Assembly (NCBI GenBank): GCA_022376515.1
Contig: WTXI01000140.1
Coordinates: forward strand, 1 to 64,000
Reading direction: 5' to 3'
From: Lactifluus volemus
Taxonomy: Eukaryota; Basidiomycota; Agaricomycetes; Russulales; Russulaceae
Length of the DNA stretch: 64,000 bases
The notes beneath the pieces were generated by a model. It worked only from the letters and a program-made list of their open reading frames with translations. It had not been told where the DNA came from and made no database searches. Made by a program: the position numbers and the translations under genes. This document shows, one piece after another, positions 36,250 through 58,076 of this stretch. Numbering within the stretch: position 1 is the first letter of the stretch; every line of letters starts with the position of its first letter.

Positions 36250-37009
36250 ATGACTTCTTCAATTACCTGTACGAGCTCCTGCGCGCCGGTCCCCTCAGTT
36301 CACTGTCCTCCAGTTACCACAACTCGCTGTGGCTCCTCTGAGCTCTGGATTACCTACCACCAGGTGTCTCGCGCCCACAAACACGTGACTGCACAACTCG
36401 TCGACTGTAGCGATGAGTCGCACATCTTCGATCTCGAGGATGTGCTCGATCACGTCTTCCAGCAGGGGTTCGTAGATCCCAAGTGGCGATCTGTCTCCTG
36501 GTGGGAGGACTGCAAGTCTCTTCGTCTCAAGGCATGCGATACCGTTCAGGACCTTCTCGCACGCGGTGCTGGCAGCACCCCCGAAACCGCGCTGCGCCTC
36601 ATCATCGGTATGCTGTGTCCCACTTTGCTCCTCGCGATGAGCTGATGTGAAAGTGGATGTAGCGGATATCCCATTGGCCGTTTGGGTGCACTATGAATAC
36701 GTGCATGCTGGGCATGTCCATACCGCGACCCAGCGGTTCCGCCTCGACTTGCCGCACCTCAAGTGTGAGCGTCTGGCGCACCTCACGAACCACATCTTTG
36801 CCAAGGGATATCTCCCCGCCAAGACGCGTTCTCTGGTGTGCTGGAAGGCCCCATGTGGCAAGGTCCTCGATGAGTGCACCAAGGTCGAAGACGTGCTCAC
36901 TTTGGGTGAAGGTGTTTGTGAGGGAAAACCTCTCCGCCTCGTTATTGGTGAGTTGCCCTGAACTCATCTACCTATATTTGCGGATTCTGACAATGTTATA
37001 GATTTGTAA
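36250..37009 (+). CDS. Two-module (ubiquitin-like?) protein, copy 1 of a local family
   Basis: Exons 36250-36607, 36663-36947 and 37002-37009 sum to 651 nt, an exact frame of 216 residues ending Asp-Leu-stop. After a short Cys/Pro-rich N-terminus the protein is two homologous modules of about 90 residues. One begins SELWITYH and ends ALRLIIG; the other begins AVWVHYEY and ends PLRLVIG. Exon 2 starts at the boundary between the modules. Each reads as two strands, a helix (DHVFQQGF / NHIFAKGY), strands, then a final hydrophobic strand, as in a beta-grasp fold; that is an inference. I do not recognise the family. No signal peptide or membrane helix is seen. Its own TATA box and CT-rich leader suggest it is expressed. 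Confidence 0.75.
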
Positions 37010-38882: not shown

Positions 38883-39980
38883 GCTTCGCTGGCATTGTAA
38901 TGCACAGCGCCGTAAATCGCGGTCACATGTCAACATGTCCACTTCAAGTTGCAACAACGCCACACGAACGTAATTCATGTGTGGGGAAATTCCTCCAGTA
39001 GCGACGGCTACAGTGCGGCTAACACCCAGTGGTGAGTAACTGACCAGTCGTACGGCGCCAGCAGAGAGGAACTTTTTGGGGTTTGAAGCCTTCAACTGAA
39101 GTGAAGATCCGTATCCTAAGTAATGTACGCTACATTTTGTGTTCTAATACTCATATGAGGATGATCAACGTTCTTCATGATCACTTTCACCCTTGCCCTG
39201 AGTGACTTCTTTAGTTAGAACCAAACGGCTTTCTCGGGTCCTGACCTTCTGTACAGATTGTTCGTCCGGTCTAGAAGCTCTCCGAACGTTGGCTTCGATG
39301 CTTCGACAACTATCCCTGACAGTCACGAAAATTATTGTTTTTTATTGTACTGTATTGCCCTGTTCCGACTCAATTCCGCTCATCTTATTTCAAGTTGATT
39401 CATTGAATTGCACAACGGCATTATGGACATCGAGCCGCGGGTCTTCTAATCTGCATTATCTCATGGTGTACCCCCCAGCTGACAGAAGGCTATAAAAGCC
39501 CCACCCACTTGCCTGTCTTTTCTACATCGCATTGCGATTGTGATTTCTCAACCATAGCATATTCAGATTTCTCCCTCAGCGCCCTCTCTCTTCCTAACAC
39601 TCCTACTTCAACACTCTTGTCTTTCGACTCCGACATGACTTCTTCAATTACCTGCGGGTCCGTCGCCCCAGCTCACTGTCCTTCAGTTACCGCGACTCGC
39701 TGTGGCTCCACTGAGCTCTGGATCACCTACCACCAGGCCTCTCGCGCCCACAAGCATATGACTGCGCAACTCGTCGACTGTAGCGATGCGGCGCACATCT
39801 ACGATCTCGAGGATGTACTCGATCACATCTTCCAGCAGGGGTTCGTTGATCCCAAGTGGCGATCTGTCTCCTGGTGGGAGGACTGCAAGTCCCTTCGTCT
39901 CAAGGCATGCGATATCGTTCAGGACCTGCTCGCACGCGGTGCTGGCAGCACCCCCGAAACCGCGTTGCGCCTCATCATCG

Positions 39981-40035
39981 GTAAGCTGTGTCCCACACCG
40001 TTCCTCGCGGTGAGCTGACGTGAATGTGGATTTAG
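39981..40035 (+). other. Intron 1 of the interrupted gene copy
   Basis: GTAAGC donor and TTTAG acceptor, 55 bp. It matches the first intron of copy 1 (36608-36662) in position and phase. Confidence 0.8.
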
Positions 40036-40093
40036 CGGATATCCCATTGGCCGTTTGGGTGCACTATGAATATGTGCATGCTGGTCATCTCCA

Positions 40094-40113
40094 CATCGCG
40101 AAAACTTCTCAAA
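40094..40113 (+). repeat. Left terminal inverted repeat of the transposon
   Basis: Starts CATCGCGAAAACTTCT and agrees with the complement of 54655-54674 at about 17 of 20 positions. Confidence 0.8.
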
Positions 40114-40745
40114 TTAGGGATTGCTAGGGATTACTAGGGATTGCAATCCCTTGTCCACATTTATAATCCAGTTAATAAAATTGTTTGAACAATACCTCTC
40201 ACCTCTATTTCGGCCATTTTGCATCATCTAGGGATTTTTGAGGTTATCTAGGGATTTTTAAGATTATCTAGGGATTTTTAAGATTATCTCGGGAATGTTA
40301 TGATTATTTAGGTATTGTCGGTCCATCCTTAGATCATCAAGGGATTGTACGACATTTTTGATCTAACAATAAATCGCACCTCGATTGAGGCCTAGTTGGA
40401 TTATCTAGGGATTGTTGCTCCATTCTTAGATCATCTAGGGTTTGTAAGATTATCTAGGTATTGTCGGTCCATTTCTTATATTATCAAGGGATTATAAGAT
40501 TATCTAGGGACTATCGGTCCATTCTTAGATCATCTAGGGATTGTCAGATTATCGGTCCAATATTAGATTATCTAGGGATTGTCAGGTATTCTTGGACCAA
40601 CATGATATTGTTAGACTATCTAGGGATTGTCAAGCAAAGTTTATAGCTTGGGCGCAATTTTCTCGCATACTGACATATTTGGGTCACTTCTTAGATCTCG
40701 GACCAACAAGGCCTAATCAACCCAACTAGGGATTGTCAAGCAAAG
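40114..40745 (+). repeat. Left subterminal array of AGGGATTGT-like motifs
   Basis: About eighteen copies of CTAGGGATTGT or close variants (AGGTATTGT, AGGGATTTT) occur at irregular spacing, separated by AT-rich text with recurring AGATTATC and GTCGGTCCAT. Nearly all point the same way. The same core recurs at the other end of the element, so these are likely transposase-binding sites. Confidence 0.8.
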
Positions 40746-40817
40746 TTTTTAATGTCAAATATATTTTTTCGTGTATTGACATAGTTAAGCGTATTACAGA
40801 AATTCTAAATACTTTTA

Positions 40818-42761
40818 TCACTTTTTCCCCTTACGGCGGGGCCTCTTTGGGGGCAGCAGGACCAACCTTTGGCTAGCAGCGGGAACTGCTGCATATTGAC
40901 TGCTGGGGCCGGCTGGTGGTGACGCGTCCCTATCGCTCCCATAGGACGTCGCATCATCCGGTTCTTCGGGGTCTAAAGGATAGCATTAGCGCAGATTATA
41001 TATGAAGGGTGATTACTTACTACTGAAGCGAGTCACCCTTTGGCTGACAGGGTTCAGACTGTAGGCGTCATTTGGTGGCGACAGATGCCTATCGCTGCCG
41101 CGTGATGTCAAGGAATCCCCTTCTTCAGGGTCTAAAAGATAGCGTTAGCACGAGTTATATATGAAGCGTGATTACTTACCTATAGAGAACGGGGAGTCAC
41201 GGGGCTCTCTGATGGTATCTGAACACAATATTGTTATTTGCAAACAGATAAATGAGAGTGGAAGACTTACTGTCCGAGTCACTCATATGACGTACTGCCA
41301 GTGCAGCTTGCTCTGCACGCTGACGACGCTGGGCCAGAATGAGTGCCCGGTGGTCTGGCCCTGATGTACTTGCTGGCTTGTCCGGGACCCTCTCCGCGAT
41401 ACCGTTGAAGGCGATCCTATGGAGTAGTTGATAAGTCCAGGAGATTGGTATATATAATGAGACTTACTTGGAAAATTCTTCAATGATTTCTTCGTTGAGC
41501 ACATCGACGATAGCATCAAAAAACTCTGTCCGATCGAAATATGGATCTTCGATACGCCAGTCATCAACGTTAGAGAGATTCCATCTGGCCTGTGTCATGC
41601 ATATTTGAAGAGTGATCACCGTATCGTAGAGTTCACTCACCTGTAACGCCGCGTATGCGATCGTTCTGGCAGTTGCCGTTGTAAGGCCATTCGACTCGGC
41701 TTGCCCTCTCTTGACCTGGACTACACTGCCTTTCTTCCGCAGAGCTGATTGCGGTCCTATAAAAAGATGTCTAAATGTCTGTAGTGTACAGTATATGTTA
41801 GACATGTATGATTGAAAACAAAAAACGCTTACAGAGATCAAGAAAGGCCCCATACAGAAACCTTCGTCCAAGATCCCTCGATACTGCGTCGGGTCCTCGT
41901 ACAAAAACGATGGGAACTGTGTCGATGACACGGTGATAGTGCCATCTCTCAATTTTGCTCGTGTGCTATTCGATATCAGTAAATTAGTGGAAATAATAAT
42001 ATCAATAATGACTCACTCATCTCTGTCGCGCATATAGTCTTCATATAGGTGGATAGGGCATAGGAGCGCCCCAAGTTGAGGGTGAAGGAACCCACGCGTC
42101 GTGCTCTTTTGGGCCTTGGCCAGAATGGTTGGTGTTAGAACCCGGTTAGGCATAAGAGATGCGGCATATGACAATCCTTCATCCCGCAGACTGGCAACGT
42201 CATCGCCTCTCGCCTGCGCACAGGCCTTTGTCATCTGAAAGTGTCATCAGTATATGCGTGTAGATACGTAGCCACACGTACCGCATTCATCAGGGCAAGG
42301 CGTGTCTCTTGGTCCAAATCACTCAAAATCTCAATGAATTCTGGGACTTTCTCGACCAGCCTATCGAAGATCTCAAGGGCCTCCTCTTTCCTACGTCTTG
42401 TTACCCCAGATCATCAATAAATCAAAAGATTACCCTTCCCTGAATGAGTGAAATTAACTTACTCTTGTTTTTCGGTGAGGCTCCTGCGGTCTACGCCTTT
42501 GTTACGGAGAAGTCCCTCTCTCAGCACGGTGTCAAAAGACGGGAACGGGTAATAGCTCCTTGTTGTCCATCTGGCGAATTTGCGGTAGGCATTCCAGCCA
42601 TCATTTCTGCGTAGTGGATAATTAGACAGTCTCCGGCCTAGAAATAATATATATGGGTCTTACTTTTGACGTTTGGCACCCCTCTCTTCGACTAGGGGAC
42701 TTGGGCCCCGTCTTGTGCCTTGACGTGAGACGATGTCACTGGAAGAGGTCTGAGAGGACAT
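40818..42761 (-). CDS. DUF6698-family protein carried by the transposon
   Basis: The ATG at 42761 opens MSSQTSSSDIVSRQGTRRGP, then short exons run down to TGA at 40818. The spliced text carries the hallmarks of DUF6698, a family common in Agaricomycetes: a helical part with LALMNAMTKACAQARGDDVA, the conserved FLHPQLGALLCPIHLYEDYM, then TQFPSFLYEDPTQYRGILDE. TATARTIAYAALQARWNLS and FDRTEFFDAIVDVLNEEIIE complete the core. The tail is low-complexity with a duplicated segment (DPEEGDS... and DPEEPDD..., each followed by SDRxxSPP) and ends in a basic patch RPRRKGKK, possibly a nuclear signal. The biochemical role of DUF6698 is unknown to me. Exons stay open; exact splice sites were not all resolved. 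Confidence 0.72.
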
Positions 42762-43174
42762 GAAAAGCCTGAGGATAGTAGTGAGAGAGAGACGCGACTC
42801 AAAAATGCGCATATATATGCACTTGATGTAACGTACCACATATGGGTCATGGATTACTATTCTTGGAAGCCCCAATACCGCGTCCTTGGGGCTGCACCCC
42901 TTTGTTTCACAGCTCCATGGAAGAAGCGTACAGTAATTAGGTTGTTTTGGGCTAAATTAAATCATTTGATTCAAAAATTAGTATATTACCTATGTTGCAC
43001 GCCGAGTCATCTCCCACTACATCTTCGAATGAATTTCGAATTGTTCGCATTGTCAACGTACTATACAAGTCCGATATCTATGAATTCGATTGTTCTATTT
43101 CCGGGGGAATTTTTCTACCAGACGCTGGACAATGTCTTGAATTGGGTTAGTAGTAGACACCGCGCAGATTGAGA

Positions 43175-44556
43175 TTACCTACCACGATGAGTTGCGCCTT
43201 CGGAGGTGACAGGCTTCTTGAGTTGACGCCACCTATGCTGGAGCCTATGAGGCGTCCAGTACGTCCATGTAGAGTCCGGAAGGGTGGTCCATATAATGTC
43301 CTCTTCCCCGTCAAGATCTAACGATGCTATTCTGGAAACGAAGGTGAGTTAAGTTGAAAGCGTAAACCAAACACATACTTGTCGACCAGAATGCGTGTGT
43401 CAGCATAGCTCCAGCGACGTTTTTTGCCATCGTTTTGCAACCTCGGCGCGAGGGCATCGACCCTATAAATAAACTCTGAGAATATACCCAAGGATCGGGA
43501 GAGCATATACCATTTGTCCCGGCACTGGTTAGCCGTCCGTGTGTGATCCATCCGCTTCGCTACCTCTGTCCAGGGAATACCTGATGTCTGGGATGACGTG
43601 CCTTCCTCACCTATCTCTTCGATTATCTGCGTAATACGTGATTCCTCAGCGGATGACCATTTGCCTGAGACACAGTAAGCCTCGCTTCAAAGGGTAAGAA
43701 AAAGGTACATTCCTCGTCGTCGTGTACCCTTGTGTTCCACGCACTTCTCATACCTGTTCTTACATTGGGTTGGGGGCCGTTCCAGGGTGTCCCTGACCTT
43801 ACCCCAGTCGCGTCCATGGTCTTTGATGATCCTGAGAGTAGCGAAAAAGTTAGTATCATTTCCATACACATGTAGATCACTTACTCTGCCAGTTTTGCAT
43901 CATCCTCAACTGTCCATTCCCGCGAATTTCTCAAGGGATGGTACAAGCATCGTACATGCTGGAAAATCGAACGGACGCTCCTCTGAGGAACAGCACGCGC
44001 TAAAGGGGATTAGTGGGCGGATAGGGAGGCTGGTGCAATGGCAACTTACCGATATGGGCCCAAAATTCTGCCCCCCTAAAGTTCCCGAATAGGAGATCAA
44101 TCAGATCGTATTCTTCACCCTGCTGAGATTAGATAAAATGTGGTACAAGCGAAGGCGTCAGTTACTTTCTGATACTCGCGGATCGCATTCTGTACGAGTT
44201 CCGTTTCTCCCTTGGTAAATTTACCCACACGGCAGGGAATGCCTGGATCTCGTTCAAACGATGCGAGTCTGCGCAAATCATGACACACCTTTGCGTCGGA
44301 ATTTATCCGCCGGCCACCATTTTGTTGCGAGCATTTCGGATTCGTTACACGGACTCGAGTCCTCCTCGGTGACCGAGTCCGTCTCGGTGACCAGGTCCTC
44401 CTCGATGACCGAGTCCGTCTCGGTGACCAGGTCGTCCTCGAAGACCGAGCCCGTCTCGGTGTCCGGGTCCTCCTCGGTGACCGGGTCCGTCTCGGTGGTG
44501 ACCGAGTCTGACTCGGTGACCGAGTCCGTCGCTGCAAGGTCCTTATGTGGCGACAT
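43175..44556 (-). CDS. Reb1-like Myb/SANT DNA-binding protein with acidic repeat N-terminus
   Basis: The ATG at 44556 (MSPHKDLAATDSVTESD) opens an acidic stretch of repeated TETDSV and EEDL units (about residues 10-65). An inferred 46-bp intron then joins FRRKGIPCRVGKFTKGETEL to the DNA-binding part. Three Myb-like units follow. One has FWAHIARAVPQRSVRSIFQH, like Reb1/TTF-1; then EWTVEDDAKLAE with DHGRDWGKVRDTL; then KWSSAEESRITQIIEEIGEE with RTANQCRDKW; and a last RRWSYADTRILVDK unit. The stop is TAA at 43175. Reb1-type proteins bind specific sites to stop RNA polymerase or open chromatin; here control of the element's own promoters is inferred. The +1 frame of the acidic repeat would encode an SR-like repeat but has no ATG. 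Confidence 0.75.
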
Positions 44557-44589
44557 TATTTACCTATTAACTACACTTTTTTTCTTAGT

Positions 44590-44866
44590 GTTTTACTGTT
44601 TATAATGATTTATTCAACGTCGTCCAGAGTACTAAGTATAAGTCTGTCTACGTATGTGGGAGAAGAGGGAAGGTGGTGGTTGCGAAAAGAGAAGATGACG
44701 CGCGCGAGTCGGTGTATAAATACAGTCGCGCTTTAGCCCTGGACATTGCGGTTGGCGGACCGGTTGGTGAGGTTTCTCGCCGATTTCCCGATCTTATCAC
44801 GCGTCCGAATTGGGGTGTATCGCGGACCGGTCGGCGAGACTTTACCGGTTCCTTTACCGGTTTCCC
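44590..44866 (-). promoter_or_regulatory. Promoter module A, firing toward the Myb gene
   Basis: Read on the minus strand: four ACCGGT sites (44759-44861), TATTTATA (44715-44722), a CT-rich tract, then the Myb ATG at 44556. The block resembles modules B and C at 46 kb over about 130 bp. The order of upstream sites, TATA and CT-rich start region is usual for fungal promoters. Confidence 0.6.
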
Positions 44867-44962
44867 GATTATATCACGCTTCCAAATTGCGGATGCATAT
44901 CGAATACCTTATTATCTTATCTTATTCCTATCGTTATCTGATAGTAACTAATGTAGTAACGA

Positions 44963-45649
44963 CTATTCCCAGTTAAACTCGTCGTCCATCTTTTTGGCCA
45001 CATGCTCCATCGCCTCCCTATAGCCATCTTCTCGCGCTTCCTGGATCATCTGTGCCAAAGAGCGGCCATATATCACGATTTCCTTCATTGTGTCCGCAAA
45101 ACTTGCTTGAGAGGTTGAGCACGATGCATGGGCAACGTAAGGGGCGTGCGTCATGCACGATGCATGAGGAATGTGGTGTGCGATGTAGGGAGAGTAAGTT
45201 GCGCAGGATGCATGGGGGATGTAAGGGGCGTGCGTCATGCATGATGCATGAGGAGCGTGGTGAGCGATGTAAGGGGAGTGGTTTGCACACGACACACAGG
45301 GCATAGAGTGCCGAAAGTGGGGACTAGGCAGTTTGCACGGCTGGGGATCAGTTTGCGTGCCTTGTCCTTTGCGCGAGGGACTATGCCCAGGGGATTCAGT
45401 TTGTACGCCCTGTCCTTCGTGGCGTAGCGGAATGGGCATAGGGAACGCGGCTAAGTCTTGGCGCCTCGAACTCTCCGGTTGAGACTCTTCTATTTCGATT
45501 ACCTCCGATGGCAATGGCGGTGGCCGCTGTGGTGGTAGTGGTGATGGTTTCATACCACCAATAAAGCCCGACGAAACGATGAGTGGATCAGGTGGTGGGA
45601 GCATTGGGTTGATCCTTGCCTTTCTAAGAGGAAATCTAGTGGCCGGCAT
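44963..45649 (-). CDS. His/Cys/Pro-rich repeat protein carried by the transposon
   Basis: Single-exon frame of 228 residues from ATG at 45649 to TAG at 44963. The N-terminal half is Pro-rich and Ser-rich (MPATRFPLRKARINPMLPPP, then several QGxQT segments). The middle holds two imperfect copies of a repeat of about 27 residues made of SPYIAHH, PHASCMTHAPY and HASCAT. It has regularly placed His and Cys residues, which could bind metal. The C-terminal 55 residues look like an amphipathic helix (EIVIYGRSLAQMIQEAREDG). I know no matching family. Its place just downstream of promoter module B supports expression. Confidence 0.6.
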   Translation of the reverse strand: MPATRFPLRKARINPMLPPPDPLIVSSGFIGGMKPSPLPPQRPPPLPSEVIEIEESQPESSRRQDLAAFPMPIPLRHEGQGVQTESPGHSPSRKGQGTQTDPQPCKLPSPHFRHSMPCVSCANHSPYIAHHAPHASCMTHAPYIPHASCATYSPYIAHHIPHASCMTHAPYVAHASCSTSQASFADTMKEIVIYGRSLAQMIQEAREDGYREAMEHVAKKMDDEFNWE

Positions 45650-45936
45650 GAGGATGGATCAGTGACGATGCGATGCTCGTGAATATATGCGAGGTTAAAT
45701 ACCGTGAATATATGCTCGTGAATATATGCGCGTGAATATATGCGCAATGTATGCCATTCACGCACATTCTATTCGGAAGTCTTCGCGCAGATCTTACGTT
45801 GTGAATCGGTGCACCAGCCCTACAGTATTCGATTCAGACTTCTTCGAATTAATCCCAGATTGTGCCTACATACCATATCTGTCATATCTCGTTCCGATTC
45901 GGAGCATGATCCCGCGTCTCGTTCTCTTATGACCAT

Positions 45937-46497
45937 TTTCGATATCTACTATACCTTATTTTTTAATTTTACGAAACAGTTTGCTTAGTATAGCGTTATA
46001 TTTTATAACAATTCTAAGTTACAGTCTATCTCTACGTAGAGTGAGAGGAAGGAAGGTGGTGGTTGCGAAAAGAGAAGACGACGTGCGCGAGTCGGGGTAT
46101 AAATACAGCCACTCTTCAGCCCTGGGCATTGGGGCTGGCGGACCGGGATGAGCGGGAGGTGAAACCGGTAAAGCAACCGGTCAAGTTCTGACCGACCGGT
46201 CCGTCAGCCTGACATTGCGGTTGGCGGACCGGGCATGGGCTGGAGGTATAACCGGTAAGTTCTGACCGACCGGTCCGTCAGCCCTTTGACACGTGCAGCA
46301 AAATGTCCAGGACTGAAGAGTGGCTGTATTTATACCCCGACTCGCGCGCTTCGTCTTCTCTTTTCGCAACCACCACCTTCCTTCCTCTCACTCTACGTAG
46401 AGATAGACTGTAACTTAGAATTGTTATAAAATATAACGCTATACTAAGCAAACTGTTTCGTAAAATTAAAAAAAAAAAGGTATAGTAGATATCGAAA
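45937..46497. promoter_or_regulatory. Central inverted repeat: divergent promoter modules B and C
   Basis: Arms 45937-46119 and 46313-46497 are near-perfect inverted copies (about 183 bp). Each contains, from centre outward, TATTTATA, a CT-rich tract, CTACGTAG and an AT-rich end. TATTTATA is at 46327-46334 on plus, and its mirror is at 46098-46105. The 193-bp centre holds five ACCGGT sites (46164-46274), including a duplicated 27-bp block. Left-firing transcripts would reach the His/Cys-repeat gene and right-firing ones the Spt5-like gene. The layout implies a shared, co-regulated promoter. Confidence 0.65.
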
Positions 46498-46661
46498 AAA
46501 AGTTAACGGTTGAAGTAGTTACGCGGCTGTCCACATCAGTACGGACATACCTCGCCGCACCTTTTGACGATGGGACGGATTCGTCGGACGCTTCAGTGCC
46601 GCGTTGAGGAGGGCGGACATGCCTCGCGGCGCCTGGGTCGGACGCTTCAGTGCCGCGTCGA

Positions 46662-46876
46662 GGAGATACACCTAATAGAAGGCGCGCCAAACCCACGCGG
46701 AACCCCCCGGTATGTAAAAATCTCTATCACATTGATGCGAGTGGAGCTGACCATGACACTTTCCGACATGAGGGTTGCGCCTGCGTGAAGAGCATATACC
46801 TAATAGAAGGCGTGCCAATGCCAAGCGGATCCCAGGTACGTAAAAATCTCATCTTATCGATGCGAGTGGAGCTGAC
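46662..46876 (+). repeat. Two direct repeats in the leader of the Spt5-like gene
   Basis: Segments of about 90 bp at 46662-46752 and 46788-46876 share ACCTAATAGAAGGCG, GTAAAAATCTC and GATGCGAGTGGAGCTGACC. Each contains a GTATGT- or GTACGT-type splice donor. They may be duplicated leader exons. A 54-bp-period repeat (CGGACGCTTCAGTGCCGCG) lies just before, at 46587-46666. Confidence 0.6.
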
Positions 46877-46981
46877 CTTGTGCTTCGGGTTGCGCCTTTC
46901 ATTGTTCTTGGCGGTGGAGCGCGGGTGCGTGCATCAGTCGAAGTGAGTCCATGCAGTTTCAAGTTATCAAACACGCAACGG

Positions 46982-49626
46982 ATGAAGTCAAACATACAAA
47001 AGGTGTTACACTCAGCGATCAGCGCCCTTTTCTCTCAAACGTTCTTCCCATGGAATATTACTCTGTGCGTAAGTTTCAGTCAACATGGACCGGTGACGGA
47101 CTGATGCTTTTTTTTTAGCTCGAGCAACTCCTTGACCTTGAAGCCGTCGTAGCTGATGACGACGAAGATGAGGAGGAGGGTGAGGAGGATCTAGGTAAGT
47201 AATTCATGTCTCAATTTTACATCGCTCAGCTTCCGCATTAGAGGAATTTCTGGCCGATGATCTGGACGAAAGCGATGCGGGTCTGGCCGAGGGTCCAGCG
47301 TTCCTGCCGGATGATCGCGTTTCCGCTACAGAAGCCTCAGAACTGGAGGCACGCGCTAGAGATTTTATGACGGACTATAGGCGAGGATACCTCCGTGAGG
47401 GGGATCAACTCCCGCAACATTCACTCGTCCCAACCCTCAGCGATCCTCATATATGGGCTGTCCGCGTCAAGGTAAGTCACTATATACGTGCATAGTACGA
47501 TCTAATGCTTTCTAGATCGGATACGAGATGAGTCTCGTATTTCAAATTTACCGCAGGTGGAATCTGGGATCCGTGGACCTGGACATCACTTCAGTTTTTG
47601 CCCGAGATGGCATTCCAGGTTATATATTCCTGGAAGGTGGTTACGCCGATGTGCAACGGGCCATCAGCAAGCTGGTAACAGTCATCCCCAACAGCAGACA
47701 ACGGCTCGTCACCTTGGAGCAGCGTGTTGCGTTGCTCAATAGTCGCAACCCAATGTCCCGTGCCATCAAGGAGGGTGAATGGGTGCGGGTAAAGTATGGA
47801 CTTTATCGCGATGACGTTGGGTTTGTGTGTGGACGTTGTGACTCTTCGGACTTGGACATTATCGTTGCGCTCATCCCTCGGATTGCTACCAAGAGCGAAC
47901 GGCGTAGAGGGGGTCACATAGGTAAGAGGAAGCGGCCCATCAGACCAGCCGCACGTCCGTGGTCCGAGACCGAACTTGTACATGAATGGGGTCCCGAAAA
48001 GGTCCAGAACATTTCACCTGACGCGTTCACATTCCGCAATGAAACATACGAATCCCGTTTGCTTATGGCACGCTACTCATCGTCCCTTCTCGATATCATC
48101 AACCACTCCCCTTCCACTTTCCCAGTTTTTGCCGCGGCCTCAAGCATTGGAGAGCGACACTCATTCGTACTGTGGCGACACCGCAATGCCCAAGCTTCCC
48201 TGCAACCCCGGCAAAGGGTGAAGGTTGAATCTGGCGAACAACAAGGACTCGTAGGATTCATAAACGAAATCATTGAGGACAGTGCCTCTATCATCCCGGA
48301 GGAAGGAGATACCCTCCAGGTGATGCCTCACGTTCTTCTCAGTGATCTAGCGCCGCATTATCTTCCTGGGGACAATGTCAAGGCCCGCTGGATGGACTCA
48401 CACGGGATTGTCCAATCGGTCAACGATGCCGATCAAAAACTCGTTTATGTCCGATCTAACCCGGTTCAAGAGGTGAAGTGATTCGACTTCACAGTGACAA
48501 CTACTGACAAGCTAGTAGATTACGATTCTCAAGGACCTAGTGGAATTCTACGAACCTCCGCTTCGGCGGGTACATTTTCGGGTGGGGACCTGGGTTGAGT
48601 TCTGTGTAGATAGCGAGGTTCAACCGCGGAAGCGGCGTGGGATCATCACACAGATGATCGATAATACCGCACGCATAAGGGACGAACGTACTTCGGCCGA
48701 TGTAAGTAGTGGACTCGTGAAGAATATCGCTGACGGCCTGGTATAGTTTATGATCGATGCGCAAGAGCTCAACGTCTGCGCCATACAAGCTTCGTCCTTA
48801 CCAAAGGACAATCTAGACTATACCATAATCGGTCAGCGAGTCATGATCACACGCGGCCCCTTCAAGAGTTACTATGGCCTTGTCAAAGAAATCGGCCTTC
48901 CTCACGTGACAGTGGAACTCGACTCTCACCTGGTCTCCAGGAGTTCGCCACGGCAGAACGTTCCATGGAAGGATATCATGACGGTGTACGTGTCTATGTT
49001 TCTTTTCTGGTCTACGATCTCTCTTACATGTCGATCTGCGGAGATAAGACTCCCGACAGAACCTGCAAGACCACCCTCGCCGTCTCGCCCTATCACTCCA
49101 CCGTCCGGTCCCTCCGTTGACTTACAGAGGCTCACACCGGAACCGGAGGGCCCACAGAGAGGTAAGTTATCCAATATCTTATCGGCATCTCAATGAAAGT
49201 CCTTTAGATCATTGGCTATTTTACCCCTCAATACACACCATTCTCCAGACGAAGAGGATACCTTTTACAGTCTCCGGCGTTGACTCCAATAAAGATTTGG
49301 TCAAGTACAAGAACAAGACGGCCCGGTCAGTACCTGAACGTCAATGGGACTCTCAGCCGGGAGAGTGGCAAGTCATCGTCTCAATATTCATTGGTAATAG
49401 GATCAAACAGATCAGCATCGATCCCAAGTACCTCGTTCCATGGAACCCAAAGCAAGGCGGTGAAGTGGTAGTCATAAATAGGCACTGCCAATTATTTGGC
49501 AACTCGGGCACTATAATTGGCAAGAAGGACGATGATTTGTTTACTGTACTATTCGGATCTACAAGGATGTCACTTGAGCTGAATCTCCCTAGCACGGACC
49601 TCGTTGTATTAGAAACTCTTAGATAG
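46982..49626 (+). CDS. Spt5-like protein with acidic N-terminus, NGN domain and KOW-like repeats
   Basis: Spt5 travels with RNA polymerase II and aids elongation. The first exon I can phase is 46982-47068 (MKSNIQKVLHSAISALFSQT); earlier leader exons are possible. Exon 47119-47194 encodes an acidic run (DDDEDEEEGEEDL). The NGN-like domain follows: HIWAVRVKIGYEMSLVFQIY, then ITSVFARDGIPGYIFLEGGY. KOW-like elements include EGEWVRVKYGLYRDDVGFV, RQRVKVESGEQQGLVGFI and QRVMITRGPFKSYYGLVKEI. A Pro/Ser linker (PSPSRPITPPSGPSVDLQRL) precedes a last KOW-like part ending at 49626. The order matches Spt5, but the CTR repeats are missing and the sequence is very diverged. The intron 47195-47229 would be only 35 bp. 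The start is uncertain. Confidence 0.75.
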
Positions 49627-49876
49627 GGAATCTGTATTACATACTATCGCAATCACATGGACATGATATAGCGCACGGTGAAGATGGACTGGTAAGGGCG
49701 TGATCTACACATGGTACGTCTTCTCAGTTTGAATTGCGCTTACTACAATGGGAAGGTAAGTCACTCTTTACACATGATGAATATATACTGATTCTATCTT
49801 AGGTTACGTTCAACGCAAGTTACTGTATGGGCATATAAAGCTCGACGTGGTTAGTCCCAGTAAATTTTGTCTCATC

Positions 49877-52800
49877 ATGGACTTAGCCGTTCAGTGCCCA
49901 GGATGTTCGCGAACGTTCAGGAACATGAAAGGGCTGTCGCTGCATCGCCCACGCTGTTCAATGCTGGATGAGACCATGGCCGAACTCAGTCGAGAGCTAC
50001 GCGAGCAAAGGGAAGCCTCAAAGCTAGCGCGCCAACAAGGAAGAGACGTTGGTGAGGAGCGACAATCAGACAGACAAGAGAATGATAACGAAACCGTAAG
50101 TACTTAACGATAGATCTACTACAAATTTACATGTTGCGCAGGAGCCCATTGATATCACAATACCAGCACCAGAGCCACCAGAAGACGCGTTTATCCCCCC
50201 ACCAACGTCTTCTGGTCGTATCCGACGGTTCCCCCGACAGTTCACCGATTTCGTCCCTTCGTTGCCAATTCGGTTACCGCATCTCCCCCCCCGTCCTCAG
50301 TGTGTTCCGTCCCCCGATTCTGATTTCCGTGTCATTTCCGATCGGGAGCCAACTCCCGAAACCTCCGACAGTGATTCCGAAGCCTGCACTACGTACGAGA
50401 CCGAACCAGACGACTTTGGCGTCTTCCGCGTCTACTCAGCTAGACCGTCTTACGATCCAGATTCACTTCAGACTGTGAACTCGCTGTTCGATCCTCCTAG
50501 CCTTGAGTCTGACAATGACTATGGGCCTTTTCGTAACGCAAGTCTCTTAAAGTTTATGCAGTGGGTTCACAATGGCAGCGACTCAAAGTCGGCTGCCCAG
50601 ATAGATGACCTTGTCAACAAGGTCATCCTTGCGGAGGGATTCAACCCGCAAGATCTACGGGGAGATGCCGCGAATGGCAGGTTCAGCTTGCAACGTGAGA
50701 ATCAACGCCTAGATTCATATGAGGGTGAGCCCTCAATACAAGATGGCTGGAAGAAAGGTAAGATCGTCCTACGCCTCCCGGGAGACAAATACAAGAACCT
50801 ATCCGAGGATGTCGCGCCGGCGTTAGAAATTGATGGAATCTGGTACAGGAGTCTCACTGAAGTGTTGAAGTCAGCTTTCGCCGAGACAGATACGAAAGAT
50901 CTACATTTGCAGCCTTTCAAGTTGTATTGGCGCAATCCCGATGATCCCAACGCCACCCCTGTACGTCTGTTCAGTGAGCTATACAACACGGATGCCTTCC
51001 TGGACGCGCATAGCAACCTGACGGCACAACATCGAGAGCCTGGCTGCGAACTCGAGAAAGTTATCGCTGCTATGATGCTCTGGTCCGACTCGACGCACTT
51101 GGCCAGCTTTGGGACCGCATCCCTCTGGCCGCTGTATCTCTATCTTGGCAATGGTTCAAAGTATCAGCGCGCGAAACCTACTTCGTTGGCTGCGCATCAT
51201 GTTGCATACATACCCTCAGTAAGTACTATTCATCGCTCGGGTCCTCAGACATACTAACAGTGATCTACAGCTACCTGATAAGACTCAAGACGTATATACC
51301 TCAATTTTTAACCAGGCCGCATCGGCAGCCACGCTAACCTATCTAAAGCGTGAGGTGATGCAATCCATGTGGAGGCTGCTTCTCGACGAACAATTCGTGC
51401 ACGCCTATATCCATGGAATCAAAATCAAATGCGCTGATGGTGTTATTCGACGTGTTTATCCACGCATATTTACATACTCTGCAGACTATCCAGAAAAGTA
51501 AGTCGCTGTATGGTTTGTTCAATCACACTGATACATGATTATATAGAGTCTTACTGGCTACAATCAAATCAATGGGCCAGTGTCCCTGTCCCCACTGTCT
51601 CGTCGAAAAGGATCAAATCGCATTCATGGGTACGAAACTCGATATGAAGCGACGACGTGACAAGGCTAGGCAAGACAGCGAGGCAAGGCAGCAGCATGTC
51701 GATCGTGCACGCAAAAGAATTTATGAGTTCGGAGATCGCGTTAATGCAAAAAGATTCGAGGACCTATTCGGCCCAACATCAGCGGTTCCCAACCGAGTAC
51801 GTATCATGACATTGAGGCATATTACAATAATCACATCCTTTCAGAACGCATTCTCGCAACGCCTATTTCAGCACGGATTCGACTTTTACAAGATGTTCGT
51901 ACCCGATCTCATGCACGAGTTTGAGTTGGGTGTGTGGAAGTCAATCTTCACACATCTGATGAGGATCCTCTACGCAAATGGTGGCACGTCTATACAAATA
52001 CTGAATGAAAGGTGTAGTACGAGCTTCTCACAGATCTTCTCCATACTCACTATGAAAGTTAGATATCGTCAGGTACCCACATTCGGCCACGATACCATCC
52101 GCGTTTTCAACTCCAACGCATCGGCGATGAAAAAGCTTGCGGCACGGGACTTTGAGGATCTACTACAGGTACGTATTCAAGTCTCATCTAGATCGTTGCT
52201 GACAGCAAAGCTAGTGCGCTATCCCTGTCTTCGAGGGGATACTGCCATCACCCCACAGCGCTCTCGTCAGCGATCTCCTATTTGTCCTCGCGACATGGCA
52301 CGCATATGCCAAACTTCGCCTTCATACGGAACACACGCTCGAGATGTTTGAAGAAGCAACATCAACGCTCGGAAAAGTGGTCCGCCACTTTCGAAAAACA
52401 AGCCGTGAGGCATTCAATACGTACGAACTTCCACGCGAGGAAGCTGCCAGAGGACGACGCAAGGCTGCAATGGCTGCTGTGTCTGACAGGAGCAGACGAG
52501 CAACTGATAAGAAGAAACGTTATCTCAATCTCTCCACGTACAAGTTCCATCGTCTGGGTGACTACGTAGAGGCTATCCGACAGTTTGGGACCACGGATAA
52601 CTTCACAACACAAGTGGTAAGTTATCGATCTATATATATATTTACGATAGATGACTTTGTGCCTCTTATCTAGGGGGAGCTAGAGCATCGACGCGTCAAG
52701 CGTTTCTATGCACGTACCAATAAGAATAAGAACTTTACGCAGCAAGTTGCACAACATCAACGGCGAGAGCGCATTTTGAAGAATATGCAAGCACATATGG

Positions 52801-53899
52801 GGTCAAGTACTCATCATGCGATGGCAGCAACTGATGAGGATGATGAAATCTTTGCATATGCGTTACCTACTGATCACTACCATATATCGGGCTCCACGCG
52901 TGATCAAACCTACTTGACCACTTGGTTGCGAGAAATGAGGACAGATCCTGCGGTACAGGCAAGTAGTTTATCTCTCACAAAGCGCCGCTAACAAGGATCT
53001 TAGAACTTTGTGCCACGCTTAAAGGACCACCTACTCGGGCGCCTGCGTGGCCATGCATTTGAAGGAGATGAGAACGAGTTCTCAGATACGGATCGCGGTG
53101 CGATCTCATTCAAATATAATCGCATCTATCAGCACAAGACAATGCGAATCAACTATACGACATATGACCTCCGCCGCTCGCAGGACTCGATCAATATCCA
53201 GACTCACAGCGATGTTATGGTCATCGCACACGAAGATCAAGATAATTCGCACCCATATTGGTATGCGCGTGTCATTGGCATCTTCAACGCCGATATCTGC
53301 TACCGTGATCCGGAATCCGGAAATGTCGACACCCAACACATGGACTTCCTCTGGGTTAGGTGGTTTGGGCGAGATCCTACTTATCGCTCAGGGATTGACG
53401 CTCGCCGCCTACCTCGAATTGGGTTTGTCCCAAATGATGACGACTTTGCCTTTGGATTCCTCTCCCCTGAGGTAGTTTTACGAGCAGTTCATCTAATCCC
53501 AGGTTTTGCACACGAGAAGACTCAAGATCTACTTCCAAATGAGTCCATTGCACGACAACCAAGTGAGAACAACTTGGATTGGAGATATTACTATGTTAAT
53601 ATGTGAGTGGTGTCTATCTCACTCTTTCTCATTTCTCACACTAATATATGGCCAGCTTTGTCGATCGCGACATGTTCATGCGGTACTCTGGTGAGGGTGT
53701 CGGCCATAAATCCACACGCCGTGCTCTTAGAGACGCCCGATTTGGTAACCCGTATGAGATTGATGAAGCGGAATGGATTGATGAAGATGATACATTAATG
53801 GTCGCTGACTCGGAGGAGGACAGTCACGCTTCGGATACTGAGAGTGAAAGTAGTGCCAGTGAACATGTAGATCTTGATGAGAATCTGATGCTGTACTGA
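49877..53899 (+). CDS. Plavaka-type transposase (CMC superfamily), apparently intact
   Basis: The ATG at 49877 opens MDLAVQCPGCSRTFRNMKGL, a C2H2-type finger, followed by a coiled coil and a Pro/Ser linker. The core shows family motifs: MLWSDSTHLASFGTASLWPL then YLGNGSKYQR (first catalytic Asp region), a zinc-binding CPCPHCLVEKDQ, and VPDLMHEFELGVWKSIFTHL. The conserved C-terminal domain has HPYWYARVIGIFNADICY, FLWVRWFGRD and RIGFVPNDDDFAFGFLSPE. The protein ends in an acidic Ser-rich tail at 53899. About ten introns are present, one with a GC donor (52959-53003), and every exon stays open, so the gene may be functional. It is the rightmost gene, next to the right subterminal array. The catalytic triad is inferred from family layout. 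Confidence 0.9.
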
Positions 53900-53989
53900 G
53901 GGCAATTACTTTAATTATACACTTTTACTCCCATCATGAGCGTGTGAAAGTGAGATAACGTGTGCGTAAAAGGCTTTAAGATTTCTGAT

Positions 53990-54600
53990 AAGATTATCAC
54001 AGCAACGATTCGTTCATCACGTCAAGAGATTGTTATCCCAACTTATGGATAACAATACCTTGACGTGAAAATCTTATCATCATAAGATCTAGTTATACAG
54101 ACAATACCTTGATATCCCAAGTTATTATCAAGTTAATACAATCTTATCACTATCAGGGATTGTTATCCCAACTTATGGATAACAATACCTTGACGTGATA
54201 ATCTTATCATCATAAGATCTAGTTATACAGACAATACCTTGATATCCCAAGTTATTATCAAGTTAATACAATCTTATCACTATCAGGGATTGTTATCCCC
54301 AAACTTCTGTTTATCCAGACAATTACCTTGGTACCCGGAATCAACTTATCACATTCGATATCATCATAAGATCTAGATGTAAAAGTTAGATACAACAATA
54401 CCTTGACATCCCAAGTTATCATCAGGTCAATACAATCTTATCACTATCAGGGATTGTCATCCCAAGTTATCACCAGGTCAATACAATCTTATCGTTATCA
54501 GGGATTGTTATTCCAAATTATTATTGACAATACCAGGTTGAAATAATTTTATTATAAAAATATATCACAAGGTATGACAAGGGATTGTAATAACTTGTCA
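53990..54600 (+). repeat. Right subterminal array
   Basis: AT-rich stretch with many CAGGGATTGTTATCCC and ACAATACCTTGA elements. These are the left-end motif AGGGATTGT and the complement of its variant AGGTATTGT. It contains the two 130-bp repeats and degenerate copies up to about 54600. Confidence 0.8.
54029..54300 (+). repeat. Two 130-bp tandem repeats at the right end of the transposon
   Basis: 54029-54158 and 54159-54288 are almost identical, and a third unit begins at 54289 before diverging. Each contains GGGATTGTTATCCC, ACAATACCTTGA and CTTATCATCATAAGATC. Confidence 0.85.
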
Positions 54601-54654
54601 AATAAGATTAAATGATAACCCCAAAATGGCGAGGGTTACCATTGTCAAACCTTT

Positions 54655-54674
54655 TTTCAGAAGTTTCCGTGATG
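54655..54674 (-). repeat. Right terminal inverted repeat of the transposon
   Basis: The minus strand starts CATCACGGAAACTTCT. The plus-strand end is CCGTGATG, followed by the duplicated CA and the resumed host exon. Confidence 0.8.
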
Positions 54675-56345
54675 CATACCGCGACCCAGCGGTTCCGCCT
54701 CGACTTGCCGCACCTCAAGTGTGAGCGCCTGGCGCACCTCACGAACCACATCTTTGCCAAGGGATATCTCCCCGCCAAGACGCGTTCTCTGGTGTGCTGG
54801 AAGGCCCCATGTGGCAAGGTCCTCGATGAGTGCACCAAGGTCGAGGACGTGCTCGCTTTGGGTGAAGGCGTTTGTGAGGGAAAAGCCTTGCGCCTCGTTA
54901 TCGGTGAGTTGCCCCGAACTCATTACCCAGCTTTGCGGATTCTGACAATGTTATATAGATTTGTAAGGAATTTTGCAACTGGTGCAAAGGAAGGCGTTGA
55001 GGGAAATTATGCCAGCGTTTTGTCAACTTTCGTTTATAGTCAACTAAAATGATGAGCCTCGTTTGGTGCCTGGTAATTGATTGATCGGCGTTCCACTTGG
55101 CTTATTTTAGCCATTGTTCTTCATTTTTTGTGGCGAGTATGCATTGATTTCCTAAATCTTATCTTGAAAGCTCCCCTTGATGATCTTTGTATCGCGGCAG
55201 TCTTATCATCTTATGGAGTCTGGGTTTATACTTATAAACTTGACGCTCCTCCCGCAGGGCCTGAATGTGACACGTATATGTTTTATGTTGTAAGAGCTTT
55301 CCCGATTTCAGGACAAGTTGGGATCTGGCTACTCAGACTAGCTTCCTGGGCGGGGTACATACTGTCCGAAAAAAGTTGTGCTTTCGAATCTACTGGGTAC
55401 GTTTATGCAGACAGGCTTTCAACTGGGTGTAGTGCACACCAATGTCGTGCGGTCGTGAAGGTCTCCTGGAAGGTTGTGTTGTTCTGTTACTCCTGTATCG
55501 TGCTTAATGTCACTTAATGAAGCCAGCGTAGATCTCGCTGAAGACTCCAGAGCGTGGGTGGTGAGACGCCTCAGACATTAGATAACAGGCCACCCAGGTT
55601 TGCATCAAAAAGACTCGGACTGGGTCCGAGTAGCATAATCGTAGAAGGTCATGACATGTTACTAAAGCTTCTCCGGAGATATCTGCAGTCCCAGTCTTTC
55701 ACTCACCCTGCCAAAGACAGGATCGAGAATGGAACTGTCGGTTGATGGAGCGAGACGGGGAGGTAGCTTAACGGATTGGTATATATGTACCATACGTTTT
55801 TTGACCAGTGAATGGTGAGCCGCATCTTCAGGTTGGGGTAGCTTTTCATAGTTGACTTGTGAGCTAGGTCTCAGGCTCAAACTTGTAAGCCCTCGCGTCA
55901 TGCAACTCCTACCACAATTCTGCTGATGGGCACCATTTTCCATAAACAGCTACAGTGTCAGCAGAGCTGAAGTCGCAGGGAACCAAGGCGAGCGGCGGTA
56001 ATTGCGCGGAACAGAATACTGTATTGTAATCCAACTTTGAGGGCTAATGGCCATGCTTCTAGTAGTACATATGCGTGAGCATGTTGACTTATTTTAGACA
56101 ATGGGTGCATAGCTAAACCGGACACCATAAACGTAACGTGGCCGGGATCACGTTTAAGCGGAGGTTGAAATATATTTTTTGTTACTCGAGTCCCGATCTA
56201 ACTTACAGTCTCAACTACTGCTCAACGTCACCCGGATTCTTAGGGCTACAGCAGATGAGGTGATAAAGACTTAATTACCACTCCAGCGTGGTAGTATTTC
56301 GCGCCAATAACGGTGACAGTTTCGCCCCTACTCAATTCGTGTCCG
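54675..56345 (+). repeat. Tandem duplication, right part of unit 2
   Basis: Resumes unit 2 after the transposon and matches 36720-38400 of unit 1, including the region after the gene. Differences include the inverted segment 55649-55832 and a 26-bp insertion near 56123. A 146-codon frame at 55077-55517 lies here; I do not recognise it, and it is shorter and disrupted in unit 1. Confidence 0.8.
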
Positions 56346-57271: not shown

Positions 57272-58076
57272 ATGGCGGTTCCAAATCACTGCGCTTCGGC
57301 CCATCCAGCTCACCGCACTTCAGTCGCCCAAGCCCACTGCTCTCAGGTCACTCCGGTTCACTGCCCTCCAGTCGCCCCAGTTTGCTGTGTTCCAGCCACT
57401 GGGGTCCGTTGCTCTTCTGAACTCTGGATCGCCTACCACCAGGCGTCGCGCTCCCACAAACAGATGACTGCTCAGCTCATCGACTGCAGTGACCTTTACG
57501 ATCTCGAGGATGTCCTCGACTACATCTTCCAGCAGGGGTTCGTAGATTCGAAGTGGAGATCTGTCGTCTGGTGGGAGGACTGCACGTTCGTTCGTCTCAA
57601 AGCGTGCGATACCATTCGGGACCTGCTCGCGCGCGGCGCCGGCAGCACCCCCAATACTGCGCTGCGCCTCATCGTTGGTATGCTGCGTCATCTTTTCATT
57701 TTAGTGAGCTGATGTGGATGTGGATGCAGCGGATGTCCCACTGGCTATTTGGGTGCACTACGAATACGTGCACGCCGGACAACATCATACTGCGACCCAG
57801 CGTATCCGCCTTGATTTATCTCACGTCAAGTGTGAGCGCTTGGCGCACATCACGAACCACATCTTCGCCCAGGGTTATCTTCCGGGAAAGGCACGTGGAC
57901 TTGTGTGCTGGAAGGGCGCGTGCGGGAGGATCATCGACGAGTGCACCAAGGTCGAGGACGTGCTTTCTTGGGGCGAGGGGGTCTCTGAATGCAAACCCCT
58001 CCGCCTTGTTATTGGCGAGTTCTTGGAACCCCATCTATCTGACTTGCGGTGCTGACAAAGGCATATAGACATGTGA
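57272..58076 (+). CDS. Two-module (ubiquitin-like?) protein, copy 3
   Basis: Exons 57272-57677, 57730-58014 and 58069-58076 sum to 699 nt, giving 232 residues in frame and ending Asp-Met-stop. Intron positions and phases equal those of copy 1, but the second intron uses a GC donor (GCGAGT at 58015). The two modules run from SELWIAYHQ to ALRLIV and from AIWVHYEY to PLRLVI. The N-terminus is longer than in the other copies and is built of 8-residue units carrying a His-Cys or Cys-Cys pair (VAQAHCSQ, VTPVHCPP, VAPVCCVP). The gene is more diverged than copies 1 and 2 are from each other, and it keeps the same TATA box spacing. Function unknown; intact frames suggest selection. Confidence 0.75.

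What the first reader, a model, noticed from the sequence alone, without database searches (positions are those of the whole stretch)
40094..54674. Giant Plavaka-type transposon with five genes, precisely bounded by its own insertion into a duplicated host gene
The uninterrupted sister gene at 36250 gives the empty site. Exon 2 of the hit copy is 287 nt once the insert is removed, against 285 nt in copies 1 and 3, so the insertion duplicated exactly 2 bp (CA). The ends are inverted repeats (CATCRCGRAAACTTCT). The layout is symmetric: subterminal arrays, outward-transcribed genes, central inverted-repeat promoter. To my knowledge Plavaka elements are described mainly by their transposase. A 14.6-kb version with four further intact-looking genes would be an unusually large autonomous element.
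Basis: partly seen in the sequence, partly recalled or inferred. Interest (0 to 1): 0.92.

Follow-up and report, generated by a model that had tools for sequence, protein, structure and literature searches.

The report
Fungal transposon carrying transcription-machinery genes
A large mobile DNA element in a milk-cap mushroom carries, besides the gene that moves it, a relative of the universal transcription factor Spt5 and a DNA-binding protein, and the same two-gene package sits in an unrelated kind of mobile element in that genome, as if jumping genes swap a tool for controlling transcription.

Summary
Observation confirmed. Window 40094-54674 (14,581 bp) is one DNA transposon with CATCRCGRAAACTTCT inverted ends and a 2-bp duplication (CA), in Lactifluus volemus (Russulales). 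The ends occur 32 times in the assembly (backwards control 0), forming 14 facing pairs; 13 of 14 have an exact 2-bp duplication. Three pairs are full-length (14.6-14.7 kb) with the same five genes, though only in the window are all five frames open by my models; a fourth copy is probably split between two contigs. Transposase, ends and duplication fit PlavakaB (Kojima 2025). So the cargo is heritable, not a local nested accident.

The cargo: a Spt5 homologue (NGN + KOW domains) without the C-terminal repeats of the host's own Spt5; a Reb1-like Myb protein; a DUF6698 protein; a small proline-rich protein. The Reb1-promoter-Spt5 block also sits, at 71-73% DNA identity, in MULE elements of the same genome (9-bp duplications, SWIM-finger transposase). 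Both versions share an ACCGGT-rich palindromic bidirectional promoter. It looks like a transcription-control cassette moved between two transposon superfamilies, as described for TET/JBP genes. Function is inferred. The literature searches made here listed no transposon-borne Spt5.

The parts
40092..40093 (.). left target-site duplication CA
54675..54676 (.). right target-site duplication CA
40094..40109 (+). left terminal inverted repeat CATCGCGAAAACTTCT
54659..54674 (-). right terminal inverted repeat CATCACGGAAACTTCT
40115..40585 (.). left subterminal repeats (TCTAGGGATTG units)
   Evidence: tandem repeat finder
54028..54521 (.). right subterminal repeats (130-bp and 51-bp units); this region differs in length in C154 and C166
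40818..42761 (-). DUF6698 protein, about 487 aa, 10 exons (model)
   Evidence: model; PF20414 8e-40
43078..44556 (-). Reb1-like Myb protein, about 370 aa, 8 exons (model; the stretch YMLSRSLGIFSEFIYR of my model is absent from the public partial model P0038 and is probably an intron)
   Evidence: Myb 9e-22; S. pombe Reb1 5eyb 4e-19; P0038 printed
44963..45649 (-). single-exon proline-rich 228-aa ORF with relatives elsewhere in the genome
45956..46476 (.). palindromic bidirectional promoter region (175-nt arms) with ACCGGT palindromes; a diverged extra arm lies at 44660-44747. Promoter role inferred from position
47050..49626 (+). Spt5-like protein, about 750-770 aa (acidic N-end, NGN, KOWs; no CTR); start and first intron taken from the public model P0001
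49877..53899 (+). Plavaka transposase, about 1,208 aa, with a GC-AG intron at 52959-53003 (start chosen by eye)
   Evidence: PF18759 3.7e-30
43103..49722 (.). outer limits of the DNA similarity to the MULE elements (Reb1-like gene to just after the Spt5-like gene); the part with the small ORF, about 44.9-45.9 kb, is extra here
   Evidence: alignment coordinates

Best explanation
The element is a young, probably recently active PlavakaB (CACTA-like, CMC group) cut-and-paste transposon in Lactifluus volemus. Shown: ends, 2-bp target duplications, near-identical full copies and short copies with the same ends. Inferred: its transposase recognises the 16-bp ends and subterminal repeats and also moves the short copies. 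It carries a transcription-control cassette of two divergent genes with one palindromic promoter: a Reb1-like Myb protein and a CTR-less Spt5-like protein. The block also occurs in MULE elements of the same genome, so it moved between superfamilies (shown by homology; direction not known). Inferred working: the Reb1-like protein binds ACCGGT palindromes in the shared promoter and so controls its own gene and the Spt5-like gene; the Spt5-like protein joins Spt4 and Pol II through its NGN and KOW domains and changes elongation on the element's chromatin, helping element genes to be transcribed where the host would silence or terminate them. I rate identity and structure at about 0.95 and the working model at about 0.35.
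For: Ends and TSDs: 13 of 14 pairs with 2 bp. Same five genes in three full-length copies; up to 54000 C154 differs from the window by 3 substitutions and 5 one-base gaps. PlavakaB features match. Spt5: sequence 6.5e-30; fold search gives Spt5 chains with E down to 2.6e-26, human NGN 3h7h TM 0.81 of the target (whole-chain TM of the query mostly about 0.2, mean pLDDT 65.9). Reb1: 4e-19. CTR: 0 TPx[W/Y] motifs in 4 of 4 TE-type proteins, 3 in the host Spt5 model, 3-4 in three other ordinary Spt5s (P0002 and P0003 are short public models). MULE sharing; 9-bp direct repeats at equal spacing in 5 of 6 copies, the sixth a 12-bp repeat holding that register. Shared promoter: ACCGGT 9 in 2,494 bp in the window and 3 in 960 bp in C223, reached by 0 of 500 shuffles each; 1 in the other 12,087 bp; 2 in 980 bp in C1 (no shuffle). 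It ranks first of the 7 shared 6-mers with at least 4 and 2 copies. Selection: dN/dS 0.52-0.64 at dS 0.39-0.47. Besides the window the 319-codon exon is stop-free over its whole length in 7 MULE places, and to codon 308 in C154.
Against: No expression, binding or mobility data. dN/dS near 0.5 is only moderate constraint. C154 has a one-base gap in a Reb1-like exon and one in an Spt5-like exon against the window; C166 has 131 substitutions and 29 gap columns in Spt5-like exons, 23 and 47 in transposase exons and 1 gap in the Reb1-like gene, and no matching TSD; assembly errors or real decay, not decided. Other Spt5 places are broken or split (C68, C138, C166, C102, C556, C616). MULE relatives C190 and C620 have Reb1-like but no Spt5 match. 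ACCGGT as a Reb1 site is a guess; the known yeast site (recalled) differs. Only 4 of 37 protein hits are TE-type by sequence, in two Russulaceae species, so the cassette does not look widespread. The stem of the TE-type clade is very long (2.15), so its place among Spt5s is uncertain.
Confidence: 0.57

Rival explanations
1. The Reb1-like and Spt5-like genes are passive cargo: a MULE once sat inside the Plavaka, lost its own ends and transposase, and the remaining genes now hitch-hike without helping the element.
For: The shared block ends just after the Spt5 gene and lacks the MULE transposase, ORF4 and TIRs, as an eroded nested insert would; dN/dS is only about 0.5; frames are interrupted in C154 and C166 relative to the window.
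Against: The exon is open in both superfamilies and the ACCGGT palindromes are kept in both; gene order and direction are the same; no MULE remnant is seen at the block's borders in the DNA comparison.
Confidence: 0.28
2. The Reb1-like protein acts as a replication-fork barrier and the pair times excision to replication, so that a cut-and-paste element gains copies.
For: S. pombe Reb1 (best PDB match) is known, from general knowledge, as a fork-barrier and terminator protein.
Against: The candidate sites sit in the central promoter, with one in the rest of the element; it gives no role to Spt5.
Confidence: 0.1
3. Dominant interference: the CTR-less Spt5-like protein competes with host Spt5 for Spt4 and Pol II and so weakens co-transcriptional silencing genome-wide.
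For: NGN and KOW domains kept, CTR absent.
Against: A global poison of transcription should be costly to the host; no evidence on dose.
Confidence: 0.15

Closest known systems
PlavakaB DNA transposons of Agaricomycotina (Kojima 2025, PMC12730594; outline, passages and sections 20 and 25 read)
   Same: transposase family, 2-bp TSD, CATC..GATG ends (right end reads CATCA, left end CATCG), accessory genes beside the transposase
   Different: accessory genes here are Spt5-like, Reb1-like, DUF6698 and a small ORF; the cargo described in what I read is TET/JBP. The words Spt5 and KOW do not occur in that paper's main text
TET/JBP genes shared among transposon superfamilies (same paper, section 25)
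   Same: an accessory gene moves passively between unrelated transposon superfamilies of fungi
   Different: here a two-gene divergent block with its promoter moved together, and the genes resemble transcription factors, not a DNA-modifying enzyme
MULE elements of L. volemus carrying the same block (C223, C68, C112, C1, C22, C384)
   Same: Reb1-like gene, palindromic promoter, Spt5-like gene in the same order and direction (gene content checked in full on C223, by DNA similarity on the others)
   Different: MULE/SWIM transposase, 9-bp TSDs, other ends, and a further gene (ORF4); no DUF6698 match in the C223 stretch
Cellular Spt5 (DSIF) and plant SPT5L/RDM3
   Same: NGN and KOW domains
   Different: no CTR; TE-type proteins form a separate clade with support 100/100 and a stem of 2.15 changes per column, away from the host's own Spt5

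Membership tests
PlavakaB transposon | Plavaka transposase domain (PF18759) | tested here: met
   3.7e-30, 105.7 bits against a cut-off of 26.3
PlavakaB transposon | 2- or 3-bp target-site duplication | tested here: met
   2 bp in 13 of 14 end pairs
PlavakaB transposon | termini CATCA..TGATG | tested here: inconclusive
   right end 5 of 5 bases; left end CATCG, 4 of 5
PlavakaB transposon | transposase falls in the PlavakaB clade of a tree | not tested
   no reference transposase set was fetched
MULE (for the other carriers of the block) | MULE transposase domain | tested here: inconclusive
   PF10551 3.4e-5, 24.6 bits, under the 27.6 cut-off; SWIM finger 20.5 bits over its cut-off of 19.6 (the query joined two reading frames)
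MULE (for the other carriers of the block) | 8-10 bp target-site duplication (recalled) | tested here: met
   9 bp at equal spacing in 5 of 6; sixth a 12-bp repeat containing the same register
Spt5 family | NGN domain and KOW domains | tested here: met
   NGN and KOW5 over cut-off, KOW2 under it
Spt5 family | C-terminal repeat region | tested here: not met
   0 TPx[W/Y] motifs in 4 of 4 TE-type proteins; so I call it Spt5-like, a homologue lacking the CTR
Spt5 family | binds Spt4 and RNA polymerase II | not testable with these tools
   needs biochemistry
Reb1/TTF1-type Myb proteins | Reb1 DNA-binding region with Myb repeats | tested here: met
   5eyb residues 86-308 aligned, 4e-19

The most novel reading that the evidence does not exclude
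The Reb1-promoter-Spt5 block is a self-contained, self-regulated transcription-licensing cassette of selfish DNA: a parasite-owned elongation factor, long separated from host Spt5, that lets unrelated transposons be transcribed in silenced chromatin and is traded between transposon superfamilies.
Probability: 0.28. Interest if true: 0.85.

Novelty: new variant of a known kind. Interest (0 to 1): 0.66.

Why it matters
Fungal transposons are known to carry TET/JBP genes, thought to act against DNA methylation. A transposon-owned Spt5-like protein, paired with a Reb1-like protein and shared by two superfamilies, would put the transcription elongation step itself into that arms race. It also gives clean material for testing how cargo genes pass between transposon superfamilies, with exact ends, an empty site and near-identical copies in one genome.

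Tried and rejected
Nested-insert accident: rejected as the account of the cargo here, because three full-length copies with the same ends share the five genes. Recent capture of the host's Spt5: rejected; the host gene model (C57) groups with Agrocybe, the TE-type proteins form their own long-stemmed clade. C556 as a divergent Plavaka that independently carries Spt5: first noted so (note), then dropped; it also holds MULE ORF4 and looks like a decayed junction. C102 carries MULE ORF4 and reads as a decayed MULE-type copy; C138 showed only Spt5 over 14.5 kb, so its class is open. Direction of transfer: not resolved; the tree leaves Plavaka-type, MULE-type and Lactarius sanguifluus unresolved. 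Of the nine more distant MULE matches (67-72%), eight lie on contigs without any Spt5 or Reb1-like match (C446, C608, C591, C135, C12, C146, C531, C604); the ninth, C223:1870-2720, has none within 100 kb. So the block is an extra in MULEs too. The whole-element DNA search did not list C154 and C166, which the protein searches found; its list is a lower bound. Fold of DUF6698: not attempted, because the protein search gave only two partial near-identical relatives. C618 interior (13 kb of other sequence) not analysed.
Full report
What was checked. Both junctions read exactly as described. Exon 2 is 284 nt in the intact sister and 286 nt in the hit copy once the insert is taken out; the third copy aligns over the same 284 nt. 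The insertion therefore duplicated two bases, CA.

Is it a real mobile unit. The 16-nt terminus CATCRCGRAAACTTCT occurs 32 times in the 62.4-Mb assembly and 0 times read backwards. Twenty-eight of the 32 form 14 facing pairs; four are single (C6, C276, C23, C268). Three pairs are 14.6-14.7 kb (C47 window, C154, C166), one is 20.2 kb (C618), ten are 2.4-3.8 kb. In 13 of 14 pairs the two bases outside the ends are identical and no longer match is found. The exception, C166, shares its right flank with the window (100% over 508 bp) but not its left, which matched nothing held. It is an assembly chimera or a rearrangement. C6 and C276 break off at contig ends, hold the left 1.9 kb (100%) and right 4.2 kb (99%), and have flanks ...GT and GT...; they are probably two halves of one more full copy. 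Their middle was not seen.

Gene content between the ends. C154 aligns to the window over its whole length at 99.6% and C166 at 97.6%. Up to position 54000 C154 differs by 3 substitutions and 5 one-base gaps; two of the gaps fall in exons of my models, one in the Reb1-like and one in the Spt5-like gene. C166 has 131 substitutions and 29 gap columns in Spt5-like exons, 23 and 47 in transposase exons and one gap in the Reb1-like gene. Whether these are sequencing faults or decay is open. So the five genes are a heritable unit and the family spread recently, but only the window copy has all five frames open by my models. Of the ten short copies one was read in full: C605 shares only about 183 bp at the left and 241 bp at the right and holds Sec2p-type sequence. 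The C618 copy keeps both ends (TSD TC) and pieces of the transposase, but about 11 kb of the element is replaced.

Whose genome. Public proteins found by search lie on contigs with the lengths of C154 (56,384), C1 (2,319,487), C223 (1,741,901) and C6 (120,008) and are named Lactifluus volemus (contig lengths). It is in Russulales, Russulaceae.

The genes. Models are from a small splice-site program and agree broadly with public models (Spt5-like 95% over 100% of the query; partial Reb1-like and DUF6698 models), which differ in some introns. Rightward: a Plavaka transposase (PF18759 3.7e-30) and an Spt5-like protein. Leftward: a DUF6698 protein, a Reb1-like Myb protein, and a 228-aa proline-rich ORF with mostly 32-45% identical relatives elsewhere in the genome (48 matches with the three full copies included). 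The Spt5-like protein has the NGN domain and KOW5 over cut-off and weaker KOW2 and acidic N-end matches, matches solved fungal Spt5 (6.5e-30), and its predicted fold finds Spt5 chains of Pol II elongation complexes (mean confidence 65.9; single domains fit well, whole chains do not superpose). The C-terminal repeats are missing: 0 TPx[W/Y] motifs in 4 of 4 TE-type proteins, against 3 in the model of the host's own Spt5 and 3-4 in three other ordinary Spt5s (two of the four, P0002 and P0003, are short public models). The Myb protein matches S. pombe Reb1 (4e-19).

The shared cassette. DNA of the Reb1-like and Spt5-like genes recurs at 71-73% in elements that are not Plavaka. The C223 copy is about 10.9 kb, with a transposase that has a sub-threshold MULE domain and a SWIM finger, then the Reb1-like gene, the Spt5-like gene and a further gene, ORF4. 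In 5 of 6 copies tested a 9-bp direct repeat lies exactly 12 bases outside the TIR core on both sides; the sixth has a 12-bp repeat that includes the same register. These are MULE marks. The shared block runs from the Reb1-like gene to 96 bp past the Spt5 stop and includes none of the MULE ends, transposase or ORF4. The stretch between the two genes is palindromic in both, with ACCGGT 9 times in 2,494 bp (window) and 3 times in 960 bp (C223), more than any of 500 shuffles, and once in the other 12,087 bp of the element. I first saw the motif by eye; among the 7 shared 6-mers with at least 4 and 2 copies it ranks first, before a poly-A word. Two MULE-type places, C190 and C620, have Reb1-like but no Spt5 match, and nine more distant MULE matches have neither nearby.

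Age and selection. Between window and MULE copies the 319-codon exon has dS 0.39-0.47 and dN/dS 0.52-0.64; between the two MULE types dN/dS is 0.40-0.45. That is constraint, but moderate. The search for the exon gave 24 matches, two of them at 30% and taken as the host gene; besides the window 7 MULE places are open over all 319 codons and C154 to codon 308, while C68 is split and C138, C166, C102, C556 and C616 hold stops. In a tree of 18 proteins (four TE-type, 13 of the other 33 search hits, and the host model) the TE-type proteins form one clade (100/100) far from all ordinary Spt5s, the host's own included. Its stem is long, several rows have unusual composition and one is half filled, so its exact root is uncertain. 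In the protein search 4 of 37 hits are TE-type by identity (over 40% against under 32%), three clusters in L. volemus and one in Lactarius sanguifluus, whose surroundings I could not see. That search scored only the 7,995 candidates sharing most words. The Reb1-like search gave one protein, from L. volemus.

How it most likely works. Shown: the unit, its ends, its duplications, its copies and the shared block. Inferred: the Reb1-like protein binds the ACCGGT palindromes and sets the output of both genes; the Spt5-like protein joins Pol II and changes elongation on the element. This parallels, in logic, the TET/JBP genes that Kojima 2025 found passed between transposon superfamilies (sections 20 and 25 read; other passages). 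The role is a proposal.

Literature. Searches of the held open-access library: Plavaka, Spt5 with CACTA transposons, Spt5 with MULE, transposon-encoded elongation factor, L. volemus transposable elements (0 papers), Plavaka with Spt5 (0 papers), Reb1 and Spt5 with transposons, Kyakuja/Dileera/Zisupton, Spt5-like with antisilencing. In the listings (titles and starts of abstracts) I saw no report of a transposon-borne Spt5 or Reb1; only PMC12730594 was opened. Subscription papers and Repbase reports are not held, so a description there is possible.

Noticed in passing
C605:52991-56581 (L043, L037); C46:597482-601072 has the same length: A 3.6-kb non-autonomous copy with the same ends holds Sec2p-type sequence (PF06428 1.2e-11), so these ends have probably captured a host gene piece.
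   Followed up: partly
C166:33865-48492 (L050, L051): Full-length copy whose right flank is the window's own host gene but whose left flank is foreign and whose TSD does not match; chimera or rearrangement.
   Followed up: partly
C618:821491-841726: Both ends and TSD TC kept, but about 11 kb of the element replaced by 13 kb of other sequence.
   Followed up: no
window 44963-45649: The small ORF belongs to a repeated gene family; relatives on C175 and C252 lie within about 4 kb of MULE-type Spt5 genes.
   Followed up: no
C223:133022-134525: ORF4 of the MULE elements, 415 aa (model), no Pfam match, also found in decayed copies on C102 and C556.
   Followed up: no
window 36250-36946, 39635-54902 (interrupted), 57434-58013 (part): Tandem host genes of unknown family (no Pfam match for copy 1); the insertion disrupts copy 2.
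   Followed up: partly
window 52959-53003: GC-AG intron in the transposase model.
   Followed up: no
Lactarius sanguifluus EDB89DRAFT_2179677 (P0004): TE-type Spt5 at 42% identity over 97% of the query in a related genus; surroundings not available here.
   Followed up: no
own genome, DUF6698: 53 DUF6698 matches, most on contigs other than those of this element; whether they belong to other transposons was not tested.
   Followed up: no
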